DNA of 64,000 nucleotides, from IMG/VR virus record IMGVR_UViG_3300021364_000008, positions 1-64,000 of that record. One strand, given 5' to 3'. The position numbers and the translations under genes are program-made. Under the pieces are notes generated by a model. That model was not told the DNA's origin. It saw only the letters and a list, made by a program, of their open reading frames with translations, and did not search any database. Shown here in pieces: positions 19,676 to 32,547 of the stretch (position 1 is the stretch's first letter; every line of letters begins with the position of its first letter). The stretch comes from a virus.

Positions 19676-20644
19676 ATGGATTTTATTGACATAAAATATA
19701 TTAATATCATTTCAACAAGACTTTCTAAGTTTAAAAAAGTTAAAGCCAATTTATACAATTTTAGATGTCCAATTTGTGGAGATTCTAGGAAAAATAAAAA
19801 CAAAGCGAGGGGATACTTATATGAAGTAAAAAACAATACAAATTATAAGTGTCATAATTGTGGAATAAATATTTCATTCTCAAATTTCTTAAAGGAAATT
19901 GATAATACTATTCATAAAGAATATTCTTTTGATAAATTTAAAGAAGGCAAAACTGGTAAAAATTTTGTAGTAGAAGAACCCAAGTTTAATTTTGAAAGTC
20001 CAAAGTTTAAAACTCGAATAAATTTACCTAAGGCATCTGAAAATGAAGATGCAAGGAAGTATTTGGAAAATAGAAAATTAGATCCTGATAAATTTTATTA
20101 TGCCGAAAAATTTAAATATTGGACAAATACTCTTAAGAAAACATTTGATAATATTGATTATGATGAACCTAGAATAATAATTCCACTATTTTATGAGAAA
20201 AAATTGATTGGATTTCAAGGTAGAGCACTAGGTAACAGTAAGATTAAATATATAACTATAATGTTAGATGAAAATGCGCCAAAAATTTATGGACTTGATA
20301 CTATTGATGAGAAAAAACCAATCTATGTGGTCGAAGGACCCTTTGACAGCACTTTTGTCAGCAATTGTGTGGCATTGTGTGGCAGTGACGGTGATGTGGG
20401 TTGTCTTAAGGGAAGCGATATTATTTTTGTGTATGATAATGAACCCCGTAATAAAGAAATTGTTGATAGAATTGACAGAATTATTGAAAGAGGATATAAA
20501 TCAGTCATCTGGCCGAGTAACATAAAGGAGAAGGACATAAACGATATGGTATTGGCTGGACTGGATGTTCAGTCTGTGATAGAATTAAATACTTATTCTG
20601 GATTACAAGCAAAAATAAAGTTTACTACTTGGAAAAAAATATGA
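19676..20644 (+). CDS. 61: DNA primase gp61
   Basis: The 322-residue protein has an N-terminal zinc ribbon (FRCPICGDSRKNK and YKCHNCGINISF) and a TOPRIM-type core: PIYVVEGPFDSTF, a Gly/Asp segment CGSDGDVG and IIFVYDNEPRNK. Gp61 makes RNA primers and works with gp41. Length matches T4 gp61 (342). It overlaps nrdA-a by four bases (ATGA), implying translational coupling. Unlike its helicase partner it is uninterrupted. Confidence 0.92.
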   Translation: MDFIDIKYINIISTRLSKFKKVKANLYNFRCPICGDSRKNKNKARGYLYEVKNNTNYKCHNCGINISFSNFLKEIDNTIHKEYSFDKFKEGKTGKNFVVEEPKFNFESPKFKTRINLPKASENEDARKYLENRKLDPDKFYYAEKFKYWTNTLKKTFDNIDYDEPRIIIPLFYEKKLIGFQGRALGNSKIKYITIMLDENAPKIYGLDTIDEKKPIYVVEGPFDSTFVSNCVALCGSDGDVGCLKGSDIIFVYDNEPRNKEIVDRIDRIIERGYKSVIWPSNIKEKDINDMVLAGLDVQSVIELNTYSGLQAKIKFTTWKKI

Positions 20645-22095
20645 GCAACCAATCAAATGTAATTAAGAGAAATGGTGAAGTGGAAATCCTTAACCTAGAC
20701 AAGATGCATGTTATGGTGGAGGAAGCTTGTAGGGGAATTTCTGGAGTTTCTGCAAGTCAAGTTGAAATGAAGTCTGGAATACAATTTTACGATGGAATTA
20801 CTACTAAGGAAATTCAAGAAATTCTTATTCGTAGTGCTAGTGATTTGATCGATCTGGATCATCCAAATTATCAATATGTTGCTGCAAGACTACTTTTATT
20901 TTCTATTCGTAAGCAACTTTATGCCAGACAGTTTGAATTGCCCCATCTTGAAGATCACATTATAAATTGTGTAAATGCTGAAGTTTACGATAATGAAATC
21001 TTTACAAAATATTCTAAAGAAGAAATTGATAAGGTAAATAGTTTCATTGATCATGATAGAGATCTTCTTTTTACTTATGCAGGTCTTCGTCAAGTAGTTG
21101 ATAAGTATTTGGTTCAAGATAGAAGTTCTGGTGGAGTATATGAAACTCCGCAGTTTATGTACATTATGATTGCTTTGACTATTTTTGCGGAATATCCAAA
21201 ACAAACTCGTTTACTTTATGTAAAAAGGTATTATGACGCAATCAGCAAACACAAGATCAACATTCCAACACCAATTATGGCAGGTGTTAGAACCCCACTT
21301 CGCCAATTTGCAAGTTGTGTTCTTGTTGATGTCGATGATACCATGCGTAGTATCGAGTCAAGTGATGCTGCTATTTTTAGGTACGTTGCTCAAAGAGCTG
21401 GAATTGGTATCAACGCAGGTCGAATCAGGGGTATCAACAGCAAAATCAGAGGGGGAGAAGTTATTCATACAGGTGTTGTCCCATTCCTCAAAAAGTTTGA
21501 AGCAACTGTTAGAAGTTGTACACAGAACGGGATTCGCGGTGGAAGTGCTACGGTCCACTTTCCAATCTGGCACCAAGAAATAGAAGACATCATTGTCTTA
21601 AAAAATAATAAAGGAACTGAGGATAATCGTGTTCGTAAGTTAGACTACAGCATTCAGATTAGTAAACTGTTCTATGAACGTTTCATTCAAGACAAAGAAA
21701 TTTCTCTCTTCAGTCCGCATGACGTTCCTGGTTTGTATGATGCTTTTGGCACTGATAGATTTGACGATCTATATTGCCATTACGAACGAGCTCAAGATGT
21801 TCCAAGAAAGACTGTCCGTGCTCAAGAACTCATTCTGGATCTTCTAAAAGAACGTGCTGAGACTGGTCGTATTTACATTATGAATATTGACCATTGTAAT
21901 TCTCATAGTTCTTTTAAGGATCAAATTACAATGTCAAACCTCTGCCAAGAAATTTGTCTGCCGACTGTACCAATTCAGCATATTGATCAAAAACCAAATA
22001 CGATGAAAATGAAAGTAAAAGTTAAAAAAGATAAAGTTAATGATTATAAAAAATATATTCAAAATACCGGAGGAGTTCTATATGACCATGAATAA
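20641..22095 (+). CDS. nrdA-a: Ribonucleotide reductase large subunit, N-fragment
   Basis: This is the class Ia alpha subunit up to just after the radical cysteine. It has the ATP-cone start (VIKRNGEVEILNLDKMHVMV), FASCVLVDVDDTM holding the first redox cysteine (E. coli C225 equivalent), GIGINAGRIRG, and SNLCQEICLPT holding the thiyl-radical cysteine (C439 equivalent). The frame stops after NTGGVLYDHE. The partner redox cysteine (C462 equivalent) is encoded by the next fragment, so the active site is shared between two polypeptides. There is no intein motif at the break. Confidence 0.92.
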   Translation: MSNQSNVIKRNGEVEILNLDKMHVMVEEACRGISGVSASQVEMKSGIQFYDGITTKEIQEILIRSASDLIDLDHPNYQYVAARLLLFSIRKQLYARQFELPHLEDHIINCVNAEVYDNEIFTKYSKEEIDKVNSFIDHDRDLLFTYAGLRQVVDKYLVQDRSSGGVYETPQFMYIMIALTIFAEYPKQTRLLYVKRYYDAISKHKINIPTPIMAGVRTPLRQFASCVLVDVDDTMRSIESSDAAIFRYVAQRAGIGINAGRIRGINSKIRGGEVIHTGVVPFLKKFEATVRSCTQNGIRGGSATVHFPIWHQEIEDIIVLKNNKGTEDNRVRKLDYSIQISKLFYERFIQDKEISLFSPHDVPGLYDAFGTDRFDDLYCHYERAQDVPRKTVRAQELILDLLKERAETGRIYIMNIDHCNSHSSFKDQITMSNLCQEICLPTVPIQHIDQKPNTMKMKVKVKKDKVNDYKKYIQNTGGVLYDHE

Positions 22096-22099
22096 TTAA

Positions 22100-22243
22100 T
22101 ACCAGAAAAGTTTTGGGTCTAAAAATGGTTGGAGTAAAAAGGTTAAAATTGGAGAAGTTGTGTATGATTGTATGAGAGAAGCATCAGAAAAAACCGGTTT
22201 AAGTTTACATTTAATTAGAAAAAAAGGAGATTTCAATGTCTAA
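22100..22243 (+). pseudogene. Homing-endonuclease remnant (NUMOD1-like) within nrdA
   Basis: Between the nrdA pieces, an open stretch in another frame reads YQKSFGSKNGWSKKVKIGEV, then VYDCMREASEKTGLSLHLIR. This is the NUMOD1-type helix-turn-helix unit that forms the C-terminal end of many phage GIY-YIG and HNH endonucleases. It has no nuclease domain and no start codon. The stop overlaps the nrdA-b ATG, and its last codons hold the AAGGAG site of nrdA-b. It is the scar of the element that broke nrdA. Confidence 0.72.
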
Positions 22244-23276
22244 TAAATTGTACGAATTTGTATTTGAAAATGAAATAGAAGATAATGAAAATTATGAATA
22301 TTTTTATGAAGATGTAGTAGTTGATGATAATCCAGCATCAATTCAGCTATGCATTCTTTCGGCAATTAATGTCGGAAAAGTAAAATCTGATGAAGAACTT
22401 GAAGAACTTTGCGATCTTTCGGTTCGTGGATTGGATGAATTGATTGATTATCAGAAATATCCTGTAAAGGCAGCTGAAATAGCTACAAAGGCACGTAGAT
22501 CCCTTGGAATAGGTTTTATTGGGTTGGCACACTATTTGGCAAAACTTGGGTTTAATTATGCAGATCAAGAAGCATGGGACGCTGTTCATGGTCTTTCAGA
22601 ATCTTTTCAGTACTATCTTTTGAAAGCATCAAATCAACTTGCTAAAGAAAAGGGATATTGTGAGTACTTTGGACGTACTAAGTATGCTGATGGTATTTTG
22701 CCAATTGATACTTATAAGAAAGATGTGGATGAGATTTCTTCAATTCCTCTTCAGCATAACTGGGAAGAACTTAGGAAGAATATTTTGGAGTATGGGTTGC
22801 GCCATAGTACATTGACTGCTCAAATGCCCTCAGAGTCATCTTCAGTGGTCTCTAATGCAACCAATGGAATAGAACCTCCTCGTGGATTCCTGTCCATTAA
22901 GAAGTCTAAGAAAGGGCCTCTTAAGCAGATTGTTCCCCAATATTCTACCTTAAAAAATAATTACACACTTTTGTGGGACATGAAATCTAATGAGGGATAC
23001 ATTAATATAGTTGCAGTAATGCAAAAGTTTTTCGATCAAGCAATCAGTGGCAATACCAGTTACAATCCAGAGAACTATCCAAATAATGAGGTCCCTGTAA
23101 GTGTCTTGGCACAAGATCTGCTTACTTGTTTTCGTACTGGATGGAAAACACTTTATTATCAAAATACTTATGATATTAAAACTGATGATTTTTCGGATAA
23201 GTCTTCAGAAATTGAAAGACTTATAAATGATATTATGGAGTCTGATGAAAATGATTGCGAATCATGTAAAGTTTAG
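22236..23276 (+). CDS. nrdA-b: Ribonucleotide reductase large subunit, C-fragment
   Basis: The 346-residue protein begins at an ATG six bases after AAGGAG and continues NrdA: IQLCILSAINVGK (redox cysteine, C462 equivalent), GFIGLAHYLAKLG, STLTAQMPSESSS, and the C-terminal ESCKV tail, which is short but keeps one cysteine. It must pair with nrdA-a to form the active site. Aeromonas phage Aeh1 has a comparable gene-in-pieces NrdA that keeps activity. The first 35 residues are acidic and poorly conserved. Confidence 0.92.
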   Translation: MSNKLYEFVFENEIEDNENYEYFYEDVVVDDNPASIQLCILSAINVGKVKSDEELEELCDLSVRGLDELIDYQKYPVKAAEIATKARRSLGIGFIGLAHYLAKLGFNYADQEAWDAVHGLSESFQYYLLKASNQLAKEKGYCEYFGRTKYADGILPIDTYKKDVDEISSIPLQHNWEELRKNILEYGLRHSTLTAQMPSESSSVVSNATNGIEPPRGFLSIKKSKKGPLKQIVPQYSTLKNNYTLLWDMKSNEGYINIVAVMQKFFDQAISGNTSYNPENYPNNEVPVSVLAQDLLTCFRTGWKTLYYQNTYDIKTDDFSDKSSEIERLINDIMESDENDCESCKV

Positions 23277-23345
23277 ATCTTACAAAGTATTAAAGAATTA
23301 AATATATTATATGAAGGTGAGGATAGATTTGTATAGAGGAATTAA

Positions 23346-24527
23346 ATGAAGTACAATTTTACATCAAAAGAAGAGCAAAAAAATTCAATTAAAGGTATGA
23401 CTGTTTTCAACACGGATCAAGTCGATACTAAAAAGCAGCCAATGTTCTTCGGTAAACCTTTGGGGATTCAAAGGTATGATTCATATAAGTATCCAATTTT
23501 TGAAAAACTTACAGTTCAACAATTGGGATATTTTTGGAGACCAGAAGAGGTTTCACTTCAAAAGGATCGTGGAGACTATCAGACACTTAGACCAGAGCAA
23601 AAACACATTTATACTTCAAATTTGAAGTATCAAATTATGCTTGATTCGGTTCAAGGTCGTGGTCCTGGACTTGCATTTCTTCCATATTGTTCAATACCTG
23701 AGTTGGAAGCTTGTATGACTGTATGGGAATTTATGGAAATGATTCACAGTCGTTCATACACATATATTATAAAAAACATATACTCAAATCCGAGTGAAGT
23801 TTTTGATACTATAATTGATGACGAATATATTTTAGAACGTGCAAAAAGTGTTACAGATTCTTATAATCAATTTATAGATTCTGCTCATCAGTATGACTCT
23901 TCTAATACTTGGATTCATAATCTCGAAGAAGTTACTTACGCACAGGAGTCATTGTATGAAACTAAACGAAAATTATACAGAGCAATTGCAAATGTTAACA
24001 TTCTTGAAGGTATTCGCTTCTACGTTAGTTTTGCTTGTTCTTTCGCCTTTGGTGAACTCAAGATCATGGAAGGATCAGCTAAAATTATCTCTCTTATTGC
24101 AAGAGACGAAAACCAACACTTAGCAATTACTCAAAATATTTTGAATAAGTGGAAGCAAGGTGATGATCCTGATATGAAAAAAATTGCTAAAGAAGAAGAA
24201 GAGTGGACTTATAAAATGTTTGATCGTGCTGTAAATGAAGAAAAAAGATGGGCAGATTATCTGTTCAAAGATGGCAGTATGATTGGACTAAATGATAAAC
24301 TTCTTCAGCAATATGTTGAGTGGATTGCAAATAGAAGATTAAAAGCAATTGGTTTAAAACCAGTTTACGATATTCCTGCAAGGAATAATCCACTTCCTTG
24401 GACTTCACATTGGATTAATTCTAAATCAGTTCAAATCGCACCTCAGGAAACGCAGATAACCAGTTATTTGGTCGGAGGAATTAAACAAGATGTTTCTGCG
24501 AATACATTTTCTGATTTCAAACTTTGA
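23346..24527 (+). CDS. nrdB: Ribonucleotide reductase small subunit
   Basis: The 393-residue class Ia beta subunit has the di-iron motif helices: ACMTVWEFMEMIHSRSYTYI (E and ExxH), LEGIRFYVSFACSFAFGE and ISLIARDENQHLA (ExxH). It generates the tyrosyl radical used by NrdA. A clear GAGGAA site precedes the ATG. It is uninterrupted, but a GIY-YIG endonuclease gene follows directly. Confidence 0.95.
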   Translation: MKYNFTSKEEQKNSIKGMTVFNTDQVDTKKQPMFFGKPLGIQRYDSYKYPIFEKLTVQQLGYFWRPEEVSLQKDRGDYQTLRPEQKHIYTSNLKYQIMLDSVQGRGPGLAFLPYCSIPELEACMTVWEFMEMIHSRSYTYIIKNIYSNPSEVFDTIIDDEYILERAKSVTDSYNQFIDSAHQYDSSNTWIHNLEEVTYAQESLYETKRKLYRAIANVNILEGIRFYVSFACSFAFGELKIMEGSAKIISLIARDENQHLAITQNILNKWKQGDDPDMKKIAKEEEEWTYKMFDRAVNEEKRWADYLFKDGSMIGLNDKLLQQYVEWIANRRLKAIGLKPVYDIPARNNPLPWTSHWINSKSVQIAPQETQITSYLVGGIKQDVSANTFSDFKL

Positions 24528-24534
24528 CAAATAC

Positions 24535-24584
24535 AACAAACTGAAATATATTATTATATAAATAGTTGTGGAGTTCAGTTTGTT
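24535..24584 (+). promoter_or_regulatory. Hairpin with late promoter in loop, GIY-YIG gene
   Basis: Perfect 11-bp arms (AACAAACTGAA at 24535-24545 and TTCAGTTTGTT at 24574-24584) enclose TATAAATA (24557-24564). The 3' arm ends three bases before the ATG. Late transcripts start inside the loop and cannot form the hairpin. Confidence 0.8.
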
Positions 24585-24587
24585 AAA

Positions 24588-25322
24588 ATGTATTATGTTT
24601 ACGAATTAATAGACCCGAGAGTTAATCTTCCTTTTTATGTTGGAAAGGGGAAAGACAAACGGGTCTATTTTCATTTGTCTGAAAAATCAAGGGCAAAAAG
24701 TGAAAACAAGAGGAAATATAATAAGATACAAAAAATGAGAGAAAATGGATGTGAACCTGAAATAAAAATAGTAAAATATTTTGAAAATGAGAATGATGCT
24801 TATGATTACGAGGAACTATTAATAGAAAAATATGGAAGAATAAGATATGATGAAAATGGAATATTAACAAATATTTGTGAAAGTTCCAGACCACCTAAGC
24901 ATAAAGGAAAAACATATCAAGAAATATATGGAGATAAGTGGGAAGAACAAATTCAAAAAAGAATGAAAACAAAAGAAAAGAGAGGAAACTATGGTGGAGT
25001 GAGAAAACATACAGAAGAAACTAAGAGAAAAATAAGTGAAAAAGTAGCAGGAAAAAATAATCCAAGTTATGGTGTTCCTTGTAGTGAAGAACGAAAAAGA
25101 AAAATAAGTGAAAGAGCAAAAGAAAGATTTGCTGGAGGTTTTAAATCGCCATCATCAGTAACTTATCTTCTAACAAGTCCTTCTGGGGAAAAATTTGAGG
25201 TGTTTGGAGAACTTAAAAAGTTTTGTAAATCTCAAAACATTTCTTATGCTACTATGCACGCAGCAATACTTTATGAAAGAAAGGGGCCAAGAAGAAATGG
25301 ATGGAGTATTGAGAAAGTTTAG
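24588..25322 (+). CDS. GIY-YIG homing endonuclease after nrdB
   Basis: The 244-residue protein has an N-terminal GIY-YIG nuclease: MYYVYELIDP and PFYVGKGKDKRVYFHL, with a catalytic-type Glu in YEELLIEKYG. Two NUMOD3-like repeats follow (HTEETKRKISEKVAGKNNPS and CSEERKRKISERAKERF), then a helix-turn-helix end (FGELKKFCKSQNISYATMHA). It is free-standing, next to a gene type (nrd) often targeted by such elements. Its 3' end overlaps the next gene by 26 bases. Confidence 0.9.
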   Translation: MYYVYELIDPRVNLPFYVGKGKDKRVYFHLSEKSRAKSENKRKYNKIQKMRENGCEPEIKIVKYFENENDAYDYEELLIEKYGRIRYDENGILTNICESSRPPKHKGKTYQEIYGDKWEEQIQKRMKTKEKRGNYGGVRKHTEETKRKISEKVAGKNNPSYGVPCSEERKRKISERAKERFAGGFKSPSSVTYLLTSPSGEKFEVFGELKKFCKSQNISYATMHAAILYERKGPRRNGWSIEKV

Positions 25323-25710
25323 AGTGTCACTACCAGATGATGAGTGTGTAATCAAACTCCAAGAGTATTGTAAGTTTTCTTCTACACTTTTAAAAATACC
25401 AGTCATATCAAAACCTTTGTGTGTTGATGCAAACTGCCACAATAATGTAAATCATTATGTGGAAACTTATGGTGGAGAAAAAATAAGTGGTTATTATTTG
25501 ATTACAGATACTGAAGATGTGAACTATGGATGTGCGATATATCATAGTATTTGGAAAAATACTTATGGAGATTTGGTGGATATAACACCATTTGGAGATG
25601 GTAGAGAATATAACATGTTTTCTGTATCAAATACTGAAGAGTATTTCTCTGGTGTTGCTTATGATGGTAGTGATTATAAAATATTAGAACCAGGACTTAA
25701 TGTTGTTTAA
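25297..25710 (+). CDS. Conserved protein with Cys/His-rich SEC-C-like neighbourhood
   Basis: The 137-residue protein contains CVDANCHNNVNHYVETYGGE, then YGCAIYHSIW and GDLVDITPFGDG. This order of CHxNV, GG, HxxWxN and DITP resembles an uncharacterised family found in many bacteria and phages. The His and Cys residues might bind metal. The start at 25297 lies inside the end of the endonuclease gene; later starts are possible because the homologous part begins about residue 9. Confidence 0.55.
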   Translation: MDGVLRKFRVSLPDDECVIKLQEYCKFSSTLLKIPVISKPLCVDANCHNNVNHYVETYGGEKISGYYLITDTEDVNYGCAIYHSIWKNTYGDLVDITPFGDGREYNMFSVSNTEEYFSGVAYDGSDYKILEPGLNVV

Positions 25711-25772
25711 GTGTCAGCAAAGACACATTTAGTGGATTTAAACTCTGACAAAGTAGCAAAAATATGCTTAAA

Positions 25773-25799
25773 TAGGAGGTAGCAACACCTCCTATTTTT
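25773..25799 (+). terminator. Intrinsic terminator carrying an SD-like arm
   Basis: Perfect 8-bp stem TAGGAGGT / ACCTCCTA with loop AGCAAC, then five T. The 5' arm is also a consensus Shine-Dalgarno sequence, sequestered by the stem, and the next ATG begins at 25800 immediately after the T-run. Confidence 0.78.
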
Positions 25800-25955
25800 A
25801 TGCCTAGAAATAGAATAGACAAGCACGAACTCACTGCAAGAATTCATAAACTTAAGCATCAATTGTATGAGGAACCATATTTAAATACTCATAAAGAACT
25901 GGCACATAAATATTTGAACGCAGTTCTTGGTATCATTGAAGAATATAGATATTGA
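25800..25955 (+). CDS. Small conserved helical protein
   Basis: This 51-residue protein begins MPRNRIDKHELTARIHKLKH and ends ILGIIEEYRY-like (VLGIIEEYRY). It is fully helical and charged. It starts directly at the end of a terminator hairpin, so it is either leaderless-like from a read-through transcript or translated inefficiently. I regard it as real because the composition and helix pattern are protein-like and the reading frame is compactly placed. Confidence 0.55.
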   Translation: MPRNRIDKHELTARIHKLKHQLYEEPYLNTHKELAHKYLNAVLGIIEEYRY

Positions 25956-26376
25956 CTATGAAAATCCTTGGATCTATAATGGGAAACCCTTTACTAGTGC
26001 TGATATTGGGGAGTACTTTGGTTTTGTTTATCTCATTACCAACAAGACCAACGGTAGAAAATATATCGGGAGAAAGTACCTATGGCAGTTTAGAACTCCA
26101 AAGGGAAAGAAACGCAAAGTAAAATCAGAATCTGACTGGAAGAAATACTATGGATCTTGTCCAGAACTTAAGGAAGATATTGATCGAATCGGGAAAGATA
26201 ATTTTTCACGGACTATACTCTCATTACATAAAACCAAAGGGAAAACCAACTACGAAGAAACAAGACAACTCTTCACCAACGGAGTTTTGACTGAAGCATT
26301 AGAGGACGGAACACCTGCTTTTTATAATTCGAATATACTTTCGAGATATTTTAGAAAAGATTACTTTGATAAATAA
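25936..26376 (+). CDS. SegE-like GIY-YIG endonuclease-family protein
   Basis: The core reads WIYNGKPFTSADIGEYFG, then GFVYLITNKTNGRKYIGRKY and a charged middle with ESDWKKYYGSCPELKEDIDR. This is the T4-like SegE/GIY-YIG arrangement in which GFVYL and KYIGRKY form the three-stranded GIY-YIG sheet. There is no obvious DNA-binding tail. I place the start at TTG 25936 (KNIDIDYENPW); TTG 25927 is an alternative and no ATG is available. It overlaps the small gene upstream by 20 bases. Confidence 0.72.
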   Translation: MKNIDIDYENPWIYNGKPFTSADIGEYFGFVYLITNKTNGRKYIGRKYLWQFRTPKGKKRKVKSESDWKKYYGSCPELKEDIDRIGKDNFSRTILSLHKTKGKTNYEETRQLFTNGVLTEALEDGTPAFYNSNILSRYFRKDYFDK

Positions 26377-26403
26377 TTAAGTATAATTCTAATATCTTAA
26401 TTA
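26368..26403 (+). promoter_or_regulatory. Late-promoter variant overlapping hairpin, HNH gene
   Basis: GATAAATA (26368-26375) overlaps the 5' arm of a perfect 8-bp hairpin (TAATTAAG 26374-26381 / CTTAATTA 26396-26403). The 3' arm ends two bases before ATG 26406. It has the same logic as the other endonuclease leaders. Confidence 0.68.
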
Positions 26404-26405
26404 CT

Positions 26406-26984
26406 ATGATACACAGACATCATATTATTCCAAGACATATGGGTGGTGATGATAGTGAGGGAAATATTGTGGAATTGCCTTATTGGGCACATATAGAAGT
26501 TCATAAAAGATTGTGGGAAGTGTGTGGAAGGTTGGAAGATAAACTTGCATATTGTATGCTTTCGGGAAAAACAGAAGAGGCTGAAAAAGTAAGAATAGAA
26601 CTTGCCAAAACAAAATATCAAAAATGGTTAAAAGAAAAACCAGAAGAAGTTGAAAGGTGGAAGAAAAATATTAGCAAATCCAAAAAAGGAGTAAAATGTC
26701 TTCCTGATGAACACTATAAAAAACTTGGTAATGATTTAAAAGGTATTCCAAGAAGTCAAGAAGTTAGAGATAAAATTAGTAAAGCAAAGAAAGGAAAATC
26801 TGTTGCCCAACCAAATCAAATGAAAACTTATGAAATTATAAAACCTAATGGTGAAGTTTTGATTGTTAAAGGATTGAATGAGTTTTGTAAAAATGAAGGA
26901 ATTGATGCTTCAAATATGTGTAATGTTGCTAAAGGAAAGTTTAAGCAACATAAAGGATACAAGTGTAGATTAATAAATACCTAA
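26406..26984 (+). CDS. HNH homing endonuclease
   Basis: The 192-residue protein starts at the HNH motif itself (MIHRHHIIPRHMGGDDSEGN and WAHIEVHKRLW). NUMOD3-like repeats follow (SKSKKGVKCLP and DKISKAKKGK), then a C-terminal helix-turn-helix (LNEFCKNEGIDASNMCNVAK). It lacks the short N-terminal extension of the other HNH proteins here, so it may be slightly truncated. It follows the SegE-like gene and precedes the ADP-ribosyltransferase-like gene. Confidence 0.85.
   Translation: MIHRHHIIPRHMGGDDSEGNIVELPYWAHIEVHKRLWEVCGRLEDKLAYCMLSGKTEEAEKVRIELAKTKYQKWLKEKPEEVERWKKNISKSKKGVKCLPDEHYKKLGNDLKGIPRSQEVRDKISKAKKGKSVAQPNQMKTYEIIKPNGEVLIVKGLNEFCKNEGIDASNMCNVAKGKFKQHKGYKCRLINT
26972..26979 (+). promoter_or_regulatory. 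Late-promoter variant AATAAATA
   Basis: The octamer lies 19 bases before the ADP-ribosyltransferase-like gene, inside the end of the HNH gene. Confidence 0.55.
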
Positions 26985-26998
26985 AAAGTGTAATATAA

Positions 26999-27454
26999 AT
27001 GAAAACATTCCAAGAATTTATTGCAGAGGTAAAAAGATTAAGATATGTAAAAATGTATCACGGAACTTCTGCATCTTCTGCGGATAAAATTAAAAAATCT
27101 GGGTTCAATACTCCAGAAGTTTATACTTCAACATCAAAAGAAACTGCAAAATCTTTTGGACAAAGAAAGGGTGAGGATACTAAAGTAATATCTTTTAGGG
27201 TTCCTAAAAAAGACATTAAAGATAAATCTCCAGGAAAAGTTGTAAAAACAGATGGGCAAAGGGGAACAGATAGATGGGGAAGGAAACATTATTCCTCTAC
27301 TATGGATAGTGATTATGCAAAAAAACACATATCAAAAGAAAAGCAAGGTGTAATTGATGCACCAAAAATTCCTAAAAAATATCAAAGTTTATTACCGGCA
27401 AATAGTAGATTTAAGAGAAGAACAGAAACACAACCAAAGAAAAAAGAAATTTAA
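26999..27454 (+). CDS. ADP-ribosyltransferase-like internal protein
   Basis: Residues 1-11 (MKTFQEFIAEV) nearly match the capsid-targeting sequence of T4 internal proteins (MKTYQEFIAEA as I remember it). Next, KMYHGTSASSADKIKKSGF, YTSTSKETAKSFGQRKG and a strand VISFRVPKK resemble the R/H-Y-[EQ] ADP-ribosyltransferase fold (HGT for NAD binding, then the STS-like strand). The third catalytic motif (ExE or QxE) is not obvious. The C-terminus is basic. I infer a small Alt-like protein packaged in the head and injected. Family assignment is moderate. Confidence 0.6.
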   Translation: MKTFQEFIAEVKRLRYVKMYHGTSASSADKIKKSGFNTPEVYTSTSKETAKSFGQRKGEDTKVISFRVPKKDIKDKSPGKVVKTDGQRGTDRWGRKHYSSTMDSDYAKKHISKEKQGVIDAPKIPKKYQSLLPANSRFKRRTETQPKKKEI

Positions 27455-27463
27455 TTTTTTTTT

Positions 27464-27763
27464 ATGAAACCTTTAAAATGGATTAAAAATCTTTTGGAGC
27501 ACTTGACGGAAGAAACAAGTGCTCCTATAGTGGAGGAACCTACTTCAGGAAAGATTATTATGGAAAAGACGACTGAAGATATCGTCGCACATGTTCGTGA
27601 ATGGGCAATTGATAGAGTTGGTGATCTTCACGAAGAAGTTTATAAAAATCAAAAAGATGTTGGAAATCTTGATGATGCATGTGCAATTTACCAAGAATTT
27701 GTGGAATGGATTGAACCAGAGACAAAAGAACTTGATATCCTTTCTCTAGAACAAGAAACTTGA
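27464..27763 (+). CDS. Conserved cyanophage hypothetical protein
   Basis: This 99-residue acidic protein begins MKPLKWIKNLLEHLTEETS and has helices with TEDIVAHVREWAIDRVGDLH and WIEPETKELDIL. No domain is recognised. It lies nine bases after the ADP-ribosyltransferase-like gene and ends before a dual promoter. Confidence 0.6.
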   Translation: MKPLKWIKNLLEHLTEETSAPIVEEPTSGKIIMEKTTEDIVAHVREWAIDRVGDLHEEVYKNQKDVGNLDDACAIYQEFVEWIEPETKELDILSLEQET

Positions 27764-27788
27764 CAGAGTATAAATACTCACTTATAAT
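27760..27788 (+). promoter_or_regulatory. Overlapping early and late promoter
   Basis: TTGACA (27760-27765), a 17-bp spacer and TATAAT (27783-27788) form a consensus sigma70 promoter. The spacer contains a perfect TATAAATA late octamer (27769-27776) within a near-palindrome. Host sigma and the phage late factor would compete for the same DNA. Confidence 0.78.
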
Positions 27789-27889
27789 ATGAAATCCCAC
27801 ATTGGGAAATGATTTAGAGCCGTGGAAGGTGCCCCTTGAGAAAGGGTTGGACCCCCCTTCTAAACGGATGTAGAGTTCAATTTAATTCA

Positions 27890-28252
27890 GTGCGTTTATT
27901 TTCAACTTTTCTTTTTGCCGTAGCAACACTGGGACTTGCAACCCCACAAGCACAGGCAGCAAGCGGATGTACTTCCGCATCACATTATGGAGTGGGTGAT
28001 GGTTATCATGGTAGAACAACTGCCAATGGAGAAACCTACAATGCATATGGTAATTCAGTAGCACATCGTTGGCTACCATTTGGAACCAGACTGAAAGTGA
28101 CGAATCAGTCAAATGGTAGGTCAGTGATTGTCAGAGTCAATGACCGAGGACCATATGTTGGGGGAAGAGATCTTGACCTTTCTTATGGTGCATTTTCTTC
28201 TATAGCAAGCCCATCTCAAGGAATTGCAAGAGTTTGTTATACTTTAGTTTAA
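27890..28252 (+). CDS. RlpA-like double-psi beta-barrel protein, secreted
   Basis: From GTG 27890 the product has a clear signal peptide (FSTFLFAVATLGLATPQAQA, cleavage about residue 23). An RlpA-like barrel follows: ASHYGVGDGYHGRTTANGE, LPFGTRLKVTNQSNGRS and VRVNDRGPYVGGRDLDLS. RlpA proteins bind or cleave peptidoglycan. The conserved Asp of VNDRGP is present. Upstream codons as far as 27836 are open, but their peptide does not look like a leader. About 100 bases between promoter and start fold well and may be regulatory. It is probably acquired from a bacterial host. Confidence 0.8.
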   Translation: MRLFSTFLFAVATLGLATPQAQAASGCTSASHYGVGDGYHGRTTANGETYNAYGNSVAHRWLPFGTRLKVTNQSNGRSVIVRVNDRGPYVGGRDLDLSYGAFSSIASPSQGIARVCYTLV

Positions 28253-28266
28253 TCTATTCTTGGGGG

Positions 28267-28290
28267 GAGAAAGTACTTTCTTCTCCATTT
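28267..28290 (+). terminator. Possible terminator after rlpA-like gene
   Basis: GGAGAA / TTCTCC arms around GAAAGTACTTTC-type symmetry, followed by ATTTT. The T-run is weak. It is directly followed by a TCTAAATA octamer. Confidence 0.5.
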
Positions 28291-28298
28291 TCTAAATA
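28291..28298 (+). promoter_or_regulatory. Late-promoter variant TCTAAATA
   Basis: The octamer stands 28 bases before the peptidase ATG. The same TCTAAATA form recurs before several fibre genes in this window. Confidence 0.6.
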
Positions 28299-28326
28299 GT
28301 ATGTAATTCTGATTGGATAATAAAAG

Positions 28327-29016
28327 ATGAAAATAGATTTACATAACTTTTTTAGATTTTACGATCAAAAAAACCCAAAGCACGTTGCAGCAGTAGAACA
28401 GCTTGAAATTGATCTTGCAAGCTCTCCATTGATTGAGGATACTGCAAATTGGGTACGAATTTATAGAACACCAATAGATAAACCAAGATCAAATATTCTA
28501 GAAGTACCTTATTATCCACAAACAGATAATTATAGAGATCCCCAAAGGACTTGCAATTCTTCTGCTTGTGCAATGTGTCTTGAGTATTTTAAACCAGGCA
28601 CTTTAAAGGGGGCAAAGGGAGACAATGCCTACATTAGAAAAGTTTTTGCAATTGGTGATACAACAGATCACTCAGTTCAGACAAGAGTATTGTCTGGATA
28701 TGGTGTCAATAGCAAGTTTAGTTATAATCTTTCTTTCACAGATCTTGATATTCAACTTAATTCTGGGAAGCCAGTTGTTATTGGCATTTTACATAGAGGT
28801 AGCTTGTCTTATCCTACTGGCGGCCACATGTGCGTCGTGATTGGAAAAACTGAATCTGGTAATTATGTTGTGAATGATCCGTATGGAAACCTGAATGATG
28901 GATATACTTCTTCGGTATATAATGGTAAAGGTGCTGTTTATTCCAAATATGTTCTGGAAAAAAGGTGGACTCCTGATGGTCCTAATAGTGGATGGGGGAG
29001 AGTTTTCTTTAAATGA
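28327..29016 (+). CDS. C39-like cysteine peptidase
   Basis: The 229-residue protein has LEVPYYPQTDNYRDPQRTCN with a catalytic-type Cys in CNSSACAMCLEYF, and later GGHMCVVIGKT with the catalytic-type His and YVVNDPYGN with Asp. This is the PYYxQ...C...GxH...ND pattern of papain-like C39-type peptidases, often linked to cell-wall degradation or bacteriocin processing. It has no signal peptide. With the RlpA-like protein upstream and a membrane protein downstream it could be part of a lysis or entry module. Confidence 0.75.
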   Translation: MKIDLHNFFRFYDQKNPKHVAAVEQLEIDLASSPLIEDTANWVRIYRTPIDKPRSNILEVPYYPQTDNYRDPQRTCNSSACAMCLEYFKPGTLKGAKGDNAYIRKVFAIGDTTDHSVQTRVLSGYGVNSKFSYNLSFTDLDIQLNSGKPVVIGILHRGSLSYPTGGHMCVVIGKTESGNYVVNDPYGNLNDGYTSSVYNGKGAVYSKYVLEKRWTPDGPNSGWGRVFFK

Positions 29017-29300
29017 ATAATTTCCCGGATTCTCAAGAAGATATTGTGGATATTCTTGCAAAAGCTGGATATTTAAAGGCATCAAATGATAAAGTAGAAC
29101 TTTCTATGAAAGATTCTAAAACTATGGATATTCAGATCAAAGATAATATTTTTGGAACTCAAATTGAGTTGGAAGATGATGGAAATCTTGCATTGAGTTT
29201 AACATTTGACACAAAAAAACTTAGAAATTCTAATCACTTTGATGCAAAAAAATCTATAGATATTGCAATAAAAAGTTTCTTAGAGGATAATAATGTTTAA
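29013..29300 (+). CDS. Small acidic hypothetical protein
   Basis: This 95-residue protein overlaps the peptidase stop by four bases (ATGA). It begins with a helix (QEDIVDILAKAGYLK) and continues with beta-like VELSMKDSKTMDIQIKD and IELEDDGNLALSLTFD. No family is recognised. It is co-translated between the peptidase and a membrane protein. Confidence 0.6.
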   Translation: MNNFPDSQEDIVDILAKAGYLKASNDKVELSMKDSKTMDIQIKDNIFGTQIELEDDGNLALSLTFDTKKLRNSNHFDAKKSIDIAIKSFLEDNNV

Positions 29301-29721
29301 ACTTTTTGAAATAAAGGAGGGTAAATTAAAAGTTCTCCCAATCTTAAGTAAAAGAAAATTTAAGGGTTTTTTACTATCTTCTATTCTTTTGTTGATTATT
29401 GCTGGAGTTTCTGGATGGTTGAAGATTGATGAAAATGAGTTATTTAAGTTGTATAATGCAATAATCAATCATTTTGAAATGCAATATGATGTTCCTCAAG
29501 AACATAAAGAAAGAGTATTAGATTCTAAAGTTGAAACTGAAGTTGATAATGCCATAAAGGAATATCAAGACTTGACAGGTGATGATGGGAGGGTTAGAAT
29601 ACAGGGGCCTACATATGTTGAAGAAGAAGCAAAACCAGAAAATCAAACTGGTGATGCTGGACTTCTTGGACCACCTATGAGACTCTGTGCTCCCTGGGTT
29701 GACAACTGTCCCAAGGAGTGA
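29293..29721 (+). CDS. Single-span membrane protein
   Basis: The 142-residue protein has a basic N-terminus (KVLPILSKRKFK), one transmembrane helix at about residues 26-43 (GFLLSSILLLIIAGVSGW), a predicted helical segment (HKERVLDSKVETEVDNAIKE) and a Pro/Glu-rich tail with two Cys near the end (RLCAPWVDNCPKE). Type II topology with a periplasmic domain is plausible. It could act with the peptidase upstream, but spanin-type identity is not proven. Confidence 0.62.
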   Translation: MFKLFEIKEGKLKVLPILSKRKFKGFLLSSILLLIIAGVSGWLKIDENELFKLYNAIINHFEMQYDVPQEHKERVLDSKVETEVDNAIKEYQDLTGDDGRVRIQGPTYVEEEAKPENQTGDAGLLGPPMRLCAPWVDNCPKE

Positions 29722-29815
29722 TATACTAAACACATTGGCAGCAAGGGTCCAAACCTTGTGTAAGTCCTACCCCTCCCAAGCCTATCAACGATGCTCAAAC
29801 AGGGAGGACTCTTAT
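29722..29815 (+). other. Non-coding stretch before tRNA cluster
   Basis: There is no plausible gene. CCTCCC and GGGAGG form a possible long-range stem (about 29770-29808), which may be a processing signal for the tRNA transcript. Confidence 0.35.
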
Positions 29816-29888
29816 GGGCGTATGGTGAAGTGGATTATCACTAGGAGCTTCTACCTCCTCATCCCTGGTTCGAATCCGGGTACGCCTG
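29816..29888 (+). tRNA. tRNA-Arg (TCT)
   Basis: Acceptor GGGCGTA / TACGCCT (one G-T pair), anticodon stem AGGAG / CTCCT with loop CTTCTAC (anticodon TCT), and T-loop TTCGAAT. It reads AGA codons, which are frequent in this phage. Confidence 0.9.
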
Positions 29889-29925
29889 TTATAAGTAACA
29901 GCAGAAAATTATATGAAAATACCCA

Positions 29926-29954
29926 TTGACACCAACCCAAAATAATGCTACTAT
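29926..29954 (+). promoter_or_regulatory. Probable sigma70 promoter
   Basis: TTGACA (29926-29931), a 17-bp spacer and TACTAT (29949-29954). It lies between the tRNA-Arg and tRNA-Gly genes. Confidence 0.5.
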
Positions 29955-30022
29955 ATAAAATGATAGAGGGTAAGTCCCTGTTATATCCTTATGAGGTATA
30001 TCACACTTACTCCATTAAACAC

Positions 30023-30051
30023 TTGACAATCAAATTAGAATAGTTTATGAT
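30023..30051 (+). promoter_or_regulatory. Sigma70-type promoter before tRNA-Gly
   Basis: TTGACA (30023-30028), a 17-bp spacer and TATGAT (30046-30051), ending eight bases before the mature 5' end of tRNA-Gly. Confidence 0.75.
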
Positions 30052-30059
30052 TGTCTTAT

Positions 30060-30131
30060 GCGAAAGTAACTCAACGGTAGAGTCCCTGCCTTCCAAGCAG
30101 GTTGTTGCGAGTTCGAATCTCGTCTTTCGCT
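30060..30131 (+). tRNA. tRNA-Gly (TCC)
   Basis: Acceptor GCGAAAG / CTTTCGC, anticodon stem CCTGC / GCAGG with loop CTTCCAA (anticodon TCC), and T-loop TTCGAAT. It reads GGA codons. Confidence 0.9.
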
Positions 30132-30154
30132 CTGAACCCCTAAGGTTCTTTATT

Positions 30155-30224
30155 GGGGTGTAGCTCAGCGGTAGTAGAGGGAGCTGTTAACATCTAGGTC
30201 GCAGGTTCGATCCATGCCGCCCCA
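30155..30224 (+). tRNA. Degenerate tRNA-Asn-like gene (GTT)
   Basis: The overall order matches tRNA-Asn: GGGGTGTAGCTCAGCGGTAG, then CTGTTAA loop with anticodon GTT, then GGTCGCAGGTTCGATCC. The anticodon stem (GGGAG / CATCT) and T-stem (GCAGG / CATGC) each hold a mismatch, and the last acceptor pair fails. It may be decaying or edited. Confidence 0.6.
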
Positions 30225-30381
30225 GTTGGTAGTCCTTAGCGATTAACTAAGTAGACGCCAACCTTACCAAAAGTTTTATTGATGCCTGTGGGGAGTCAAT
30301 AAATTACTATGGTATTGTACACCTTCTACCCAGCGTATCTTGCTGGGGGTCGTAAGGGGAGGGCATTGTTCTCCCCATCAA
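30225..30381 (+). other. Structured non-coding spacer between tRNA genes
   Basis: There is no gene. It holds a perfect hairpin CCCAGC / GCTGGG (about 30330-30348) and a GTTGG / CCAAC pairing close to the tRNA-Asn 3' end. The base composition is less AT-rich than the surroundings. It may be a tRNA relic or a processing element. Confidence 0.35.
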
Positions 30382-30455
30382 GCCCGAGTGACCCAGAGGA
30401 ATGAGGTTCTCGACTTAAAATCGAGCAGTCGTGGGTTCGAATCCCACCTCGGGTA
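30382..30455 (+). tRNA. tRNA-Leu (TAA) with short variable arm
   Basis: Acceptor GCCCGAG / CTCGGGT, anticodon stem CTCGA / TCGAG with loop CTTAAAA (anticodon TAA), and T-arm GTGGG TTCGAAT CCCAC. Only five bases (CAGTC) lie between anticodon and T-stems, whereas leucine tRNAs normally carry a long variable arm. Confidence 0.85.
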
Positions 30456-30509
30456 TTCTTGGAAAGAATTTGATTTTTATTGAATAAATATAAGAAGTTA
30501 TTAGATTTG

Positions 30510-30773
30510 ATGATGATTAGGGTAAGATGTAAGGTATGTTCTAAAGAAGTTGGAGATTTCTATGGAGACCTTGGTTGTTGCGGATGTCACAATTTAACTT
30601 CAGTTAGAAATGGTAAAATTATTGCCAAAGATTTAACAAAAGTTGTTATTATAGACTCTCCTAAAAAAGATAATAAATCAAATAAAGGTGGTGTTTTATC
30701 ATCAGAAGATATTTCATGGCAAGAATCTAGACGTAATCGTAAAATTCGTAAGCTTGATTTTGAAGTTAGATAA
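30510..30773 (+). CDS. Small zinc-finger-like conserved protein
   Basis: The core MIRVRCKVCSKEVGDFYGDL then GCCGCHNL gives a CxxC...CCxC pattern that could bind zinc. A C-terminal basic part (SWQESRRNRKIRKLDFEVR) follows. It is familiar from cyanomyoviruses but without known role. Translation starts at ATG 30510 or 30513; an in-frame TTG at 30480 is less likely. Confidence 0.65.
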   Translation: MMIRVRCKVCSKEVGDFYGDLGCCGCHNLTSVRNGKIIAKDLTKVVIIDSPKKDNKSNKGGVLSSEDISWQESRRNRKIRKLDFEVR

Positions 30774-30845
30774 AGGTATATTTAAATACCATAAGTTTTC
30801 TTAAAAGATGTAAAATTGTTATATACTATAAATGTTATTAATTTT

Positions 30846-30992
30846 ATGGATCAACATACATATGACAATTGGCTGAAAATAAAAGAAACTTTTGAAAAAT
30901 CTGGAAATACTTCTAATTCATTTTACAAAAGGGCATGTACAATTGTAAAAACAAAAACTGATCCTCTTAAAAAATATTTGGGAGATGAATGA
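30846..30992 (+). CDS. Very small conserved protein (48 aa)
   Basis: The product begins MDQHTYDNWLKIKETFEKSG and contains FYKRACTIVKTKTDPLKKYL. The pattern YxxWLKxKE...FYKRA...DPL recurs in cyanophage small proteins as I remember them. It overlaps the next gene by eight bases (ATGAATGA). Confidence 0.6.
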   Translation: MDQHTYDNWLKIKETFEKSGNTSNSFYKRACTIVKTKTDPLKKYLGDE

Positions 30993-31122
30993 ACAAGAAG
31001 AAAACAGAGAATTTTACAAACAGTTGATGGAAAGAGTCAAACAACTTAGAATGAGAGAACTGTTTGAAGAACCTTCTACATACGAGGACGATGATGACGA
31101 CGATTTCAACTTTGTTATCTAA
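30985..31122 (+). CDS. Very small acidic protein (45 aa)
   Basis: It begins MNEQEENREFYKQLMERVKQ, is helical, and ends in a run of six Asp before FNFVI. The start codon overlaps the previous stop, suggesting coupled translation. Function is unknown. Confidence 0.5.
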   Translation: MNEQEENREFYKQLMERVKQLRMRELFEEPSTYEDDDDDDFNFVI

Positions 31123-31204
31123 CGATTTATTTCTTGCAGCACTGTGTTACCTCTTGACAATGACACCAATCATAGGTATAATGATCATACATTCAAGGAA
31201 ATAA
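31094..31204 (+). CDS. Possible 36-residue membrane peptide
   Basis: An ATG-initiated frame encodes TTISTLLSNDLFLAALCYLL followed by TMTPIIGIMIIHSRK: one hydrophobic span of about 25 residues and a basic end. It overlaps the acidic gene in another frame and contains a consensus promoter, so coding is uncertain. Holin-like small peptides have this shape. Confidence 0.35.
   Translation: MTTISTLLSNDLFLAALCYLLTMTPIIGIMIIHSRK
31154..31182 (+). promoter_or_regulatory. Perfect consensus sigma70 promoter
   Basis: TTGACA (31154-31159), 17 bp, TATAAT (31177-31182): the full consensus with optimal spacing. Confidence 0.88.
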
Positions 31205-31253
31205 CGAGATGTGAGTCAGCAGTAGACAGCATCTTTTGGGAGCAATCCCGACT

Positions 31254-31261
31254 TATAAATA
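31254..31261 (+). promoter_or_regulatory. Late promoter TATAAATA
   Basis: A perfect octamer ten bases before ATG 31272, so the late transcript leader would be only a few bases. Confidence 0.7.
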
Positions 31262-31271
31262 TCCTTAATCA

Positions 31272-31451
31272 ATGAACAACATCTCTTTTTACACTGTGGA
31301 ATACTGGCAAAACAACTGGGACGAAATGATTACAAGAGTTGAAAATGGAGAAACTCTTGGAATAGAAGACAAAGGAAATAGAGCAATAATGATACCTGCG
31401 GATGATGAACTCATACGCATATACAACGAGCAAAATAACGAAGCACCTTAA
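31272..31451 (+). CDS. Small Phd/antitoxin-like protein
   Basis: This 59-residue protein begins MNNISFYTVEYWQNNWDEMI, then TRVENGETLGIEDKGNRAIM and IPADDELIRIYNEQ. The order (helix, RVENGETL turn, beta hairpin ending IMIPADDE) resembles the N-terminal half of Phd/YefM-type antitoxins, which fold around V(E)xGE and a strand ending in vP. No toxin gene is adjacent, so this is a resemblance only. Confidence 0.58.
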   Translation: MNNISFYTVEYWQNNWDEMITRVENGETLGIEDKGNRAIMIPADDELIRIYNEQNNEAP

Positions 31452-31459
31452 TTTTTCTT

Positions 31460-31531
31460 GCTTCTGTTGCTTATTGGTTAAAGCCCATGCCTTATAAGCG
31501 TGTGAACCGAGTTCAATTCTCGGCAGAAGCA
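31460..31531 (+). tRNA. tRNA-Ile (TAT)
   Basis: Acceptor GCTTCTG / CAGAAGC, anticodon stem CATGC / GCGTG with loop CTTATAA (anticodon TAT), T-arm CCGAG TTCAATT CTCGG. It reads AUA directly, a rare bacterial tRNA type that suits an AT-rich genome in a host that reads AUA with a modified CAT tRNA. Confidence 0.85.
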
Positions 31532-31534
31532 CTT

Positions 31535-31610
31535 TGCAGGTTTAGCCATCTGGAGAAGGCAGCGTTCTCATAAAGCGCCATCAGGAGAGTTCGATCCTCT
31601 CAACCTGCAC
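31535..31610 (+). tRNA. tRNA-Met (CAT)
   Basis: Acceptor TGCAGGT / ACCTGCA, anticodon stem GCGTT / AGCGC with loop CTCATAA (anticodon CAT), T-arm GAGAG TTCGATC CTCTC. Elongator Met or lysidine-modified Ile2 cannot be told apart here. Only three bases separate it from tRNA-Ile. Confidence 0.85.
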
Positions 31611-31640
31611 TTGACAGAATACCTGTCAAACCACTATAAT
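31611..31640 (+). promoter_or_regulatory. Sigma70-type promoter
   Basis: TTGACA (31611-31616) begins at the base after tRNA-Met; an 18-bp spacer and TATAAT (31635-31640) follow, 23 bp before the next ATG. Confidence 0.8.
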
Positions 31641-31662
31641 ATCAAAGTCAACATTCAAAAAG

Positions 31663-31878
31663 ATGACTCTCATTTCAAAATTCAAGAAAGATGTTCAAAC
31701 CCTTCGTGGTGCTGCTAATGGCGAATTTTTCCTTGATGTAAAGAATCCAAAACTTTATAAAAAGGTTCGTCGGTATTATGAAAGTAATGGTGTAGTTTTT
31801 TCTGGTGATCCTATGGATGATTATGATATCCTAATGGAATATATTTATAATGATCTTGAAACTGTTGAAGTTGCTTAA
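31663..31878 (+). CDS. Small conserved cyanophage protein
   Basis: The 71-residue protein reads MTLISKFKKDVQTLRGAANG, EFFLDVKNPKLYKKVRRYY, then GVVFSGDPMDDYDILMEYI. I recognise it as a conserved cyanophage protein but know no function. The mixture of basic helix and acidic C-terminus suggests an RNA- or protein-binding helper. It has its own strong early promoter. Confidence 0.65.
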   Translation: MTLISKFKKDVQTLRGAANGEFFLDVKNPKLYKKVRRYYESNGVVFSGDPMDDYDILMEYIYNDLETVEVA

Positions 31879-31921
31879 GTAGTCACGGATGGACTATAAC
31901 AGAACTGGTGGAGCCAATCCA

Positions 31922-31945
31922 TATAAATATTCTTATATTTAAGAA
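31922..31945 (+). promoter_or_regulatory. Late promoter and hairpin, frameshifted GIY-YIG gene
   Basis: TATAAATA (31922-31929) is followed at once by a small hairpin TTCTTA / TAAGAA (31930-31935 and 31940-31945). The late start site is expected near the end of the 5' arm, so late transcripts would lose it. Confidence 0.6.
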
Positions 31946-31954
31946 AATAAAATT

Positions 31955-32547
31955 ATGGAGACCTATTATACTTATGCTTATTTGAGAGAAGATGGAACAC
32001 CTTATTACATTGGAAAAGGTAAAGGTCGTAGAGCATTTCATAAAAATCATAATGTTCCTCGCCCAAACAAAGATAAAATTTTGTTCTTAAAACAAAATCT
32101 CTCTGAAGAAAATGCTTTAAAACACGAAAAATATTTAATATCAATCTTAAATAATTTGTTAAATAAAAAAAGTGGTGGTAAATCTGGTAGTCGTTCTTCA
32201 CTAACAGAAGAGCATAAAAATAAAATCAGTGCAAAATTAAAAATTGTCAGACCACTACAAATTATTACAGAAGATCATAAAAAAATATCAGTAATTCCGT
32301 AAAATCTCATTGGAAAAGTTTAACAATAGAGCAAAGAGAACAAAGAAATAAAAAAGCAGCGGAAAGAAGAAAAGAAGTTTTATCTTTGAAGACTAATTAT
32401 CAATATAAGTATTTGATAGATAATAAATCATTTAATACTTTAAATGAAGTTAGTCAAGTGTATAATGTGTCATTAGCATCTGTTAGAAATAGATGTTTGT
32501 CTAAAAATTTTCCTAATTGGAAAAGAATATCTTTTAATCTGACATAA
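31955..32547 (+). pseudogene. GIY-YIG homing endonuclease with A7 frameshift
   Basis: The first frame reads TYAYLREDGTPYYIGKGKGR (GIY-YIG core), ELLIS-like EKYLISILNN and NUMOD3-like LTEEHKNKISAKLK, then stops at 32302. After an A7 run near 32280 a second frame continues ISNSVKSHWKSLTIEQREQR and a helix-turn-helix ending SLASVRNRCLSKNFPNW. One extra A would restore a single protein of about 196 residues. It is either a recently broken gene, a slippage-dependent one, or a homopolymer sequencing error. Confidence 0.8.

What the first reader, a model, noticed from the sequence alone, without database searches (positions are those of the whole stretch)
26999..27454. Candidate injected ADP-ribosyltransferase
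It has a T4-like capsid-targeting N-terminus (MKTFQEFIAE), an ART-like YHGTS...YTSTS pattern and a late-type promoter. T4 packages Alt in the head and injects it to modify host RNA polymerase. A 151-residue Alt-like protein would be much smaller, and I know of none described in cyanophages.
Basis: partly seen in the sequence, partly recalled or inferred. Interest (0 to 1): 0.72.

Follow-up and report, generated by a model that had tools for sequence, protein, structure and literature searches.

The report
Cyanophage capsid-tagged ADP-ribosyltransferase, probably injected
A virus of ocean cyanobacteria carries a very small enzyme-like protein with the fold of NAD-using protein- or RNA-modifying toxins and with the address label that T4-like phages use to load proteins into their heads; it belongs to a family of interchangeable labelled cargo proteins that these viruses probably inject to reprogram the host at the start of infection.

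Summary
In detail: a 151-aa gene under purifying selection, with an IPIII-type capsid-targeting N-terminus, an ART-like HGT...VYTST signature and a late-type promoter. The reading "injected ART" is largely supported by sequence and prediction, with one correction. It is not Alt-like: it is a minimal H-Y-type ART, nearest Tpt1/KptA and diphtheria toxin, with no third-motif glutamate. Two AlphaFold models from different family members match ART structures (P0001 to Tpt1 Z 9.7; L036 to diphtheria toxin Z 8.7, all 50 listed entries ARTs). The tag precedes at least 36 otherwise unrelated protein families in viral contigs, including annotated T4-type internal head proteins. In the published virion proteome of cyanophage S-CREM2 such N-termini are enriched (4/52 virion vs 1/167 other proteins, p=0.012) and mark its non-structural virion proteins: SAM hydrolase, kinase, NMNAT and, internally, Cas9. 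ART homologues sit in tandem cassettes of tagged genes (ART|ART|GNAT), and one fused form exists. This phage also has a tagged NMNAT homologue. Virion presence, injection, catalysis and target are inferred, not shown.

The parts
26999..27454 (+). 151-aa capsid-tagged mini-ADP-ribosyltransferase (P0001)
26999..27028 (+). capsid-targeting sequence MKTFQEFIAE; predicted prohead-protease cleavage after E10 (IAE|V)
   Evidence: Conserved in relatives. Residues 4, 7 (targeting) and 8, 10 (processing) match the T4 IPIII determinants (PMC9026906). Portable tag.
27038..27340 (+). ART-fold domain (residues 14-114)
   Evidence: AlphaFold2 pLDDT 79.5; VIA Z 9.7 to Tpt1, 7.6 to diphtheria toxin
27059..27067 (+). 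ART motif I, H21-G-T (H invariant in the family)
27119..27133 (+). ART motif II, V41-[Y/H]42-T-S-T
27278..27292 (+). motif-III region G94-x-x-H97-Y98; no glutamate (H, D or S in other subfamilies)
   Evidence: alignments; position inferred from the alignment
27419..27445 (+). conserved basic C-terminal tail RTETQPKKK, shared by most members of three ART subfamilies, function unknown
26973..26979 (+). late-type promoter core ATAAATA
26406..26984 (+). HNH/NUMOD homing-endonuclease-like ORF directly upstream; probable mobility partner
   Evidence: PHROG homing/HNH endonuclease matches, kept next to the ART in L001, L002, L011
13867..15024 (+). second capsid-tagged ORF (MKKFSAFISEA), NMNAT/cytidylyltransferase homologue
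   Evidence: 35% identity over 275 aa, E 3e-47, to S-CREM2 gp154, a virion-detected protein; late-type promoter 26 nt upstream

Best explanation
The gene encodes a minimal H-Y-type ADP-ribosyltransferase that is a head-packaged, injected effector of a T4-like cyanophage. Proposed steps: (1) late transcription makes the precursor [promoter: shown by motif]; (2) the 10-residue CTS docks it into the prohead core [inferred from the T4 IPIII analogy and the virion proteomics of a relative]; (3) the gp21-type prohead protease trims it after E10 [inferred]; (4) the roughly 141-residue basic protein is ejected with the DNA [inferred]; (5) in the host it binds NAD and transfers ADP-ribose, or uses NAD in a related way, on a host macromolecule before phage genes are expressed [ART fold and NAD-site motifs shown by prediction; chemistry and target not shown]. 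Related phages carry it in cassettes with other tagged modifiers (a second ART, GNAT), so it is one of several exchangeable payloads.
For: ART fold: the profile against the PDB lists only Tpt1/KptA and PARP10/14 chains (best E 0.007). AlphaFold2 of P0001 has pLDDT 79.5; Foldseek top nine are all Tpt1/KptA; VIA Z 9.7 to Tpt1, 7.6 to diphtheria toxin. A second member, L036, gives 50 of 50 ART entries. H21 and Y/H42 are kept in all members. Tag: matches the T4 IPIII targeting and processing residues; precedes 36 unrelated sequence clusters, including T4-type proteins annotated internal head protein. Published S-CREM2 virion proteome: 4/52 virion vs 1/167 other ORFs carry it, p 0.012, among them SAM hydrolase, kinase and cytidylyltransferase. 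The virion-detected S-SCSM1 NMNAT starts MKSFLQFLKEA. Cassettes of tagged ART and GNAT genes. Four ART-bearing records over 120 kb encode the T4-type prohead protease and gp23. An ART-like segment lies inside the internal virion proteins of podoviruses P60 and S-CBP42.
Against: No direct virion data for this phage or for any family member. The third catalytic position is not E and varies (H/Y, D, S). Pfam ART matches are below the gathering cut-offs (0.017 for P0001; PARP 0.0004 for L036). P1' of the cleavage site is V here instead of A. The 99-kb record lacks the head module, so its own protease could not be examined. The S-CREM2 enrichment rests on few proteins, and its authors note that highly expressed proteins may co-purify.
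Confidence: 0.68

Rival explanations
1. An ART-fold protein packaged and injected but acting on nucleic acid or only binding ADP-ribose/NAD: a Tpt1-like RNA/DNA end-modifying enzyme, or a catalytically dead NAD/ADPr-binding effector such as a defence antagonist.
For: The closest fold and sequence matches for P0001 are Tpt1/KptA. Motif II varies Y/H (H is the Tpt1 residue), the motif-III glutamate is missing, and the protein is very basic.
Against: It lacks the N-terminal RNA-binding lobe of Tpt1 (only about 13 residues precede the ART domain). The L036 model is nearest diphtheria toxin. The co-encoded cassette partners include GNAT acetyltransferases, which often modify proteins.
Confidence: 0.17
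2. A late-expressed cytoplasmic ART in which the N-terminal tag does not lead to packaging, or a structural internal head protein that is packaged but not an effector.
For: No virion proteomics exist for this family. Some T4 internal proteins affect head assembly (PMC9026906).
Against: The tag is strictly kept at the N-terminus across divergent members and in tandem cassettes. The tagged proteins of S-CREM2 are found in virions. The diversity of cargo argues against a structural role.
Confidence: 0.11
3. A shrunken true member of the T4 Alt family.
For: Same proposed delivery route and enzyme class (Alt in the T4 head: and PMC9026906).
Against: No similarity to T4 Alt (E 0.95); H-[YH] rather than R-S-E signature; different N-terminal peptide.
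Confidence: 0.02
4. Chance resemblance: the ORF is not an ART at all.
For: Each single-sequence Pfam match is weak.
Against: Convergent profile, two-model and motif evidence; purifying selection.
Confidence: 0.02

Closest known systems
T4 Alt (head-packaged, injected mono-ART; modifies RNA polymerase)
   Same: Proposed route (prohead loading, prohead-protease trimming, injection) and enzyme class
   Different: No sequence similarity; 151 vs 682 aa; H-Y instead of R-S-E type; IPIII-type tag; target unknown
T4 internal proteins IPI/IPII/IPIII and their capsid-targeting sequence
   Same: N-terminal tag M-K-x-[FY]-x-x-F-I-x-E
   Different: T4 IPs are not ARTs; here the tag carries an enzyme fold
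Tpt1/KptA tRNA 2'-phosphotransferase (ART lobe)
   Same: Best profile and structure match; HGT motif and V[H/Y]xS motif
   Different: No N-terminal RNA lobe; delivery tag; probably different substrate
Diphtheria-type/PARP-type ARTs and small ART toxins (ParT, VPA0770, TreX)
   Same: Fold match of the two models; H-Y motifs
   Different: Motif III glutamate absent; phage head cargo
Virion-associated enzymes of cyanophages (SAM hydrolase, kinase, NMNAT; S-CREM2, S-SCSM1)
   Same: N-terminal capsid-tag-like motif; an NMNAT homologue is tagged in this phage too
   Different: The papers do not, in the passages read, link these proteins to a targeting tag, and list no ART

Membership tests
ADP-ribosyltransferase superfamily (H-Y type) | ART fold | tested here: met
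   (predicted structures)
ADP-ribosyltransferase superfamily (H-Y type) | Motif I histidine and motif II tyrosine/histidine with x-[ST] | tested here: met
   H21 invariant, Y/H42 in all members
ADP-ribosyltransferase superfamily (H-Y type) | Motif III glutamate (absent in some known members such as Tpt1 and mono-PARPs) | tested here: not met
   H/Y, D or S at the aligned position
ADP-ribosyltransferase superfamily (H-Y type) | NAD-dependent transfer activity | not testable with these tools
   needs biochemistry
T4 Alt family | Sequence homology to Alt | tested here: not met
   BLASTP E 0.95 over 24 residues
T4 Alt family | R-S-E catalytic signature | tested here: not met
   family has H-[YH]-x-[ST]
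T4 Alt family | Packaged in the head and injected | not testable with these tools
   indirect support only
T4-type capsid-targeted internal protein | Aromatic residues 4 and 7, hydrophobic 8, E10 (targeting and processing determinants) | tested here: met
   F4, F7, I8, E10; for the determinants
T4-type capsid-targeted internal protein | Small residue (A) after the scissile E | tested here: not met
   V11 in the window, A in nearly all relatives; A is not known to be strictly required
T4-type capsid-targeted internal protein | T4-type prohead protease and gp23 in the same phage | tested here: inconclusive
   Not in the 99-kb record (a fragment); present in the four ART-bearing records over 120 kb
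T4-type capsid-targeted internal protein | Late promoter | tested here: met
Tpt1/KptA | N-terminal RNA lobe carrying the R-H-R catalytic residues | tested here: not met
   ART domain starts at residue about 14, no room for the lobe

The most novel reading that the evidence does not exclude
T4-like cyanophages preload a modular, exchangeable set of injected effectors, each carrying the same roughly 10-residue capsid address tag (non-Alt mini-ARTs of at least three subfamilies, GNATs, SAM lyases, NMNATs, kinases). These are encoded singly, in tandem cassettes or fused, and swap between genomes with homing endonucleases, as a phage counterpart of a secretion-system effector repertoire. The tagged NMNAT may sustain NAD for the tagged ART in the same virion.
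Probability: 0.5. Interest if true: 0.85.

Novelty: new variant of a known kind. Interest (0 to 1): 0.72.

Why it matters
Packaged host-modifying enzymes are best known from T4 Alt. If a short readable tag predicts injected proteins in cyanophages, which are abundant marine viruses, their earliest-acting effectors can be listed from sequence alone and tested. A mini-ART of a different lineage, paired with acetyltransferases, suggests that post-translational takeover before phage gene expression is widespread and that the payload is rapidly exchanged.

Tried and rejected
Direct homologue in isolated phages: none good for P0001; L031 finds only podovirus internal virion proteins, L038 none. Bacterial homologues: none in 84,980 species genomes at the sensitivity of the pattern scan. 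Alt homology: rejected. gp21 by Pfam in the own record: nothing, but the control did not ring either; repeated with S-CREM2 protease and capsid proteins. A shared C-terminal tag: the RTKTQPKKK tail occurs in the ART subfamilies but no other tagged ORF with it was found in this genome, so it is not a general cargo tag. The S-PM2 annotated cytidylyltransferase start does not show the tag; not pursued. Synechococcus phage B23, nearest isolate to L018, shows no annotated equivalent of the cassette beside its gp25/gp6/gp7 genes. The L036 model has low confidence overall (pLDDT 60), so it is used only as supporting evidence.

Full report
What is there. The ORF at 26999-27454 encodes 151 residues. 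It has 39 homologous loci in IMG/VR, changes mostly synonymously (dN/dS about 0.09-0.33 against relatives at 66-96% identity) and stands 26 nt behind an ATAAATA late-type element. That element is strongly biased to the coding strand in this record (64 vs 14, about 44 expected per strand) and precedes many tail and structural ORFs. The record is a 99-kb fragment of a T4-like Synechococcus phage (nrdA/nrdB nearest S-PM2 and relatives).

The enzyme domain. Single-sequence Pfam hits are weak: ART-PolyVal 0.017 for P0001, PARP 0.0004 and ART-PolyVal 0.006 for L036. The family profile, however, finds only ART-superfamily chains in the PDB (Tpt1/KptA, PARP14, PARP10). AlphaFold2 on the natural alignment gives pLDDT 79.5. 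The first nine Foldseek hits are Tpt1/KptA, and VIA gives Z 9.7 to Tpt1 (84 residues, 3.3 A) and 7.6 to diphtheria toxin. A second model from a distant subfamily (about 41% identity to P0001) is less confident (pLDDT 60), but all 50 entries listed are ARTs, led by diphtheria toxin at Z 8.7. H21 is invariant and residue 42 is Y or H in every member; position 44 is S/T in nearly all (the third subfamily reads VYTTP there). The motif-III glutamate is absent (H/Y, D or S). Known active ARTs also lack it (Tpt1, mono-PARPs; own knowledge), so this leaves the chemistry open rather than excluding activity.

The tag. T4 IPIII needs only its first 10 residues for packaging; residues 4 and 7 matter for targeting, 8 and 10 for processing (PMC9026906). 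The window protein has F4, F7, I8 and E10. A scan for M-K-[TS]-[FY]-x-x-F-I-x-E-A in viral contigs returned 73 distinct proteins. After removing the first 12 residues they fall into 36 unrelated clusters, including T4-type proteins annotated internal head protein, glucosaminidase and DPBB domains, GNATs and this ART family.

Link to virions. The published S-CREM2 virion proteome (PMC10665884, Table 3) was mapped onto its genome. With a pattern fixed beforehand (V and L allowed at the first position for alternative starts), 4 of 52 virion ORFs and 1 of 167 others carry the tag at the N-terminus (Fisher p 0.012). The tagged ones include the SAM hydrolase, the kinase and the cytidylyltransferase. 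Cas9, also detected, has a similar motif (RFASFMAEA) at about residues 18-26, outside the strict count. The virion-detected NMNAT of S-SCSM1 starts MKSFLQFLKEA (PMC9602691). The window phage has its own tagged homologue of this enzyme at 13867-15024 (35% identity over 275 aa).

Cassettes. Around the homologues, tagged ORFs stand in tandem, often with overlapping start and stop: ART|ART|GNAT (L024; also L047/L048, whose third ORF is GNAT-like by resemblance only, with no Pfam match), ART|GNAT (L049, L050, L053, L062), several tagged ORFs in a row (L018, L060/L198), and an ART-GNAT fusion (L010) (GNAT above Pfam cut-offs in L024, L018, L010 and L198). In L018 the flanking DNA matches the baseplate-wedge region of Synechococcus phage B23. 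Genome G001 carries a tagged SAM-lyase-like ORF, two ARTs and a GNAT-like ORF; G003 carries NMNAT and ART. Four ART-bearing records over 120 kb encode the T4-type prohead protease and gp23. Close relatives of the window carry the ART either after nrdB beside the same HNH endonuclease or between nrdA and nrdB, and different ART subfamilies occupy the latter place, which suggests cassette exchange.

Convergent hint. In Synechococcus podoviruses P60 and S-CBP42 an ART-like segment with an apparent H-Y-E triad lies inside a large protein annotated internal virion protein. The similarity to this family is weak (E 0.002-0.03).

What is shown and what is inferred. Shown by sequence or prediction: coding gene, ART fold, NAD-site motifs, tag, late promoter, cassette context. 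Inferred: packaging, trimming, injection, catalysis, target. By function it is proposed to work like Alt; it is not a member of the Alt family. No paper in the library searched describes such a protein in cyanophages; subscription journals are not covered.

Noticed in passing
window 13867-15024: NMNAT/cytidylyltransferase homologue with a capsid-tag N-terminus and late-type promoter; homologues are virion-detected in S-CREM2 and S-SCSM1.
   Followed up: yes
OR473000 (S-CREM2) gp6, gp12, gp13, gp14, gp136, gp154: Non-structural proteins found in virions by MS share a capsid-tag-like N-terminus; Cas9 (gp12) has it at about residue 18.
   Followed up: yes
L010:5001-6389: Polyprotein ART + GNAT + further C-terminal region, with possible prohead-protease sites between the domains.
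   Followed up: partly
L037:2164-3552: 462-aa protein with one capsid tag at its N-terminus and a second tag-like segment directly before an internal ART domain.
   Followed up: partly
L004, L006, L030, L036, L190: Site between nrdA and nrdB holds different ART subfamilies in related phages: allele swapping at one locus, with homing endonucleases nearby.
   Followed up: partly
L063:5983-6492 and L064:5986-6453: ART-like segment with apparent H-Y-E triad inside the large internal virion protein of podoviruses S-CBP42 and P60.
   Followed up: partly
L004:4675-5235 and G001:62910: Tagged SAM-lyase family protein (Pfam above cut-off in L004), similar at its start to the virion SAM hydrolase of S-CREM2.
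   Followed up: partly
window 20629-32302: Region around nrdA/nrdB is rich in GIY-YIG, SegE-like and HNH endonuclease ORFs; the nrdA gene appears split.
   Followed up: no
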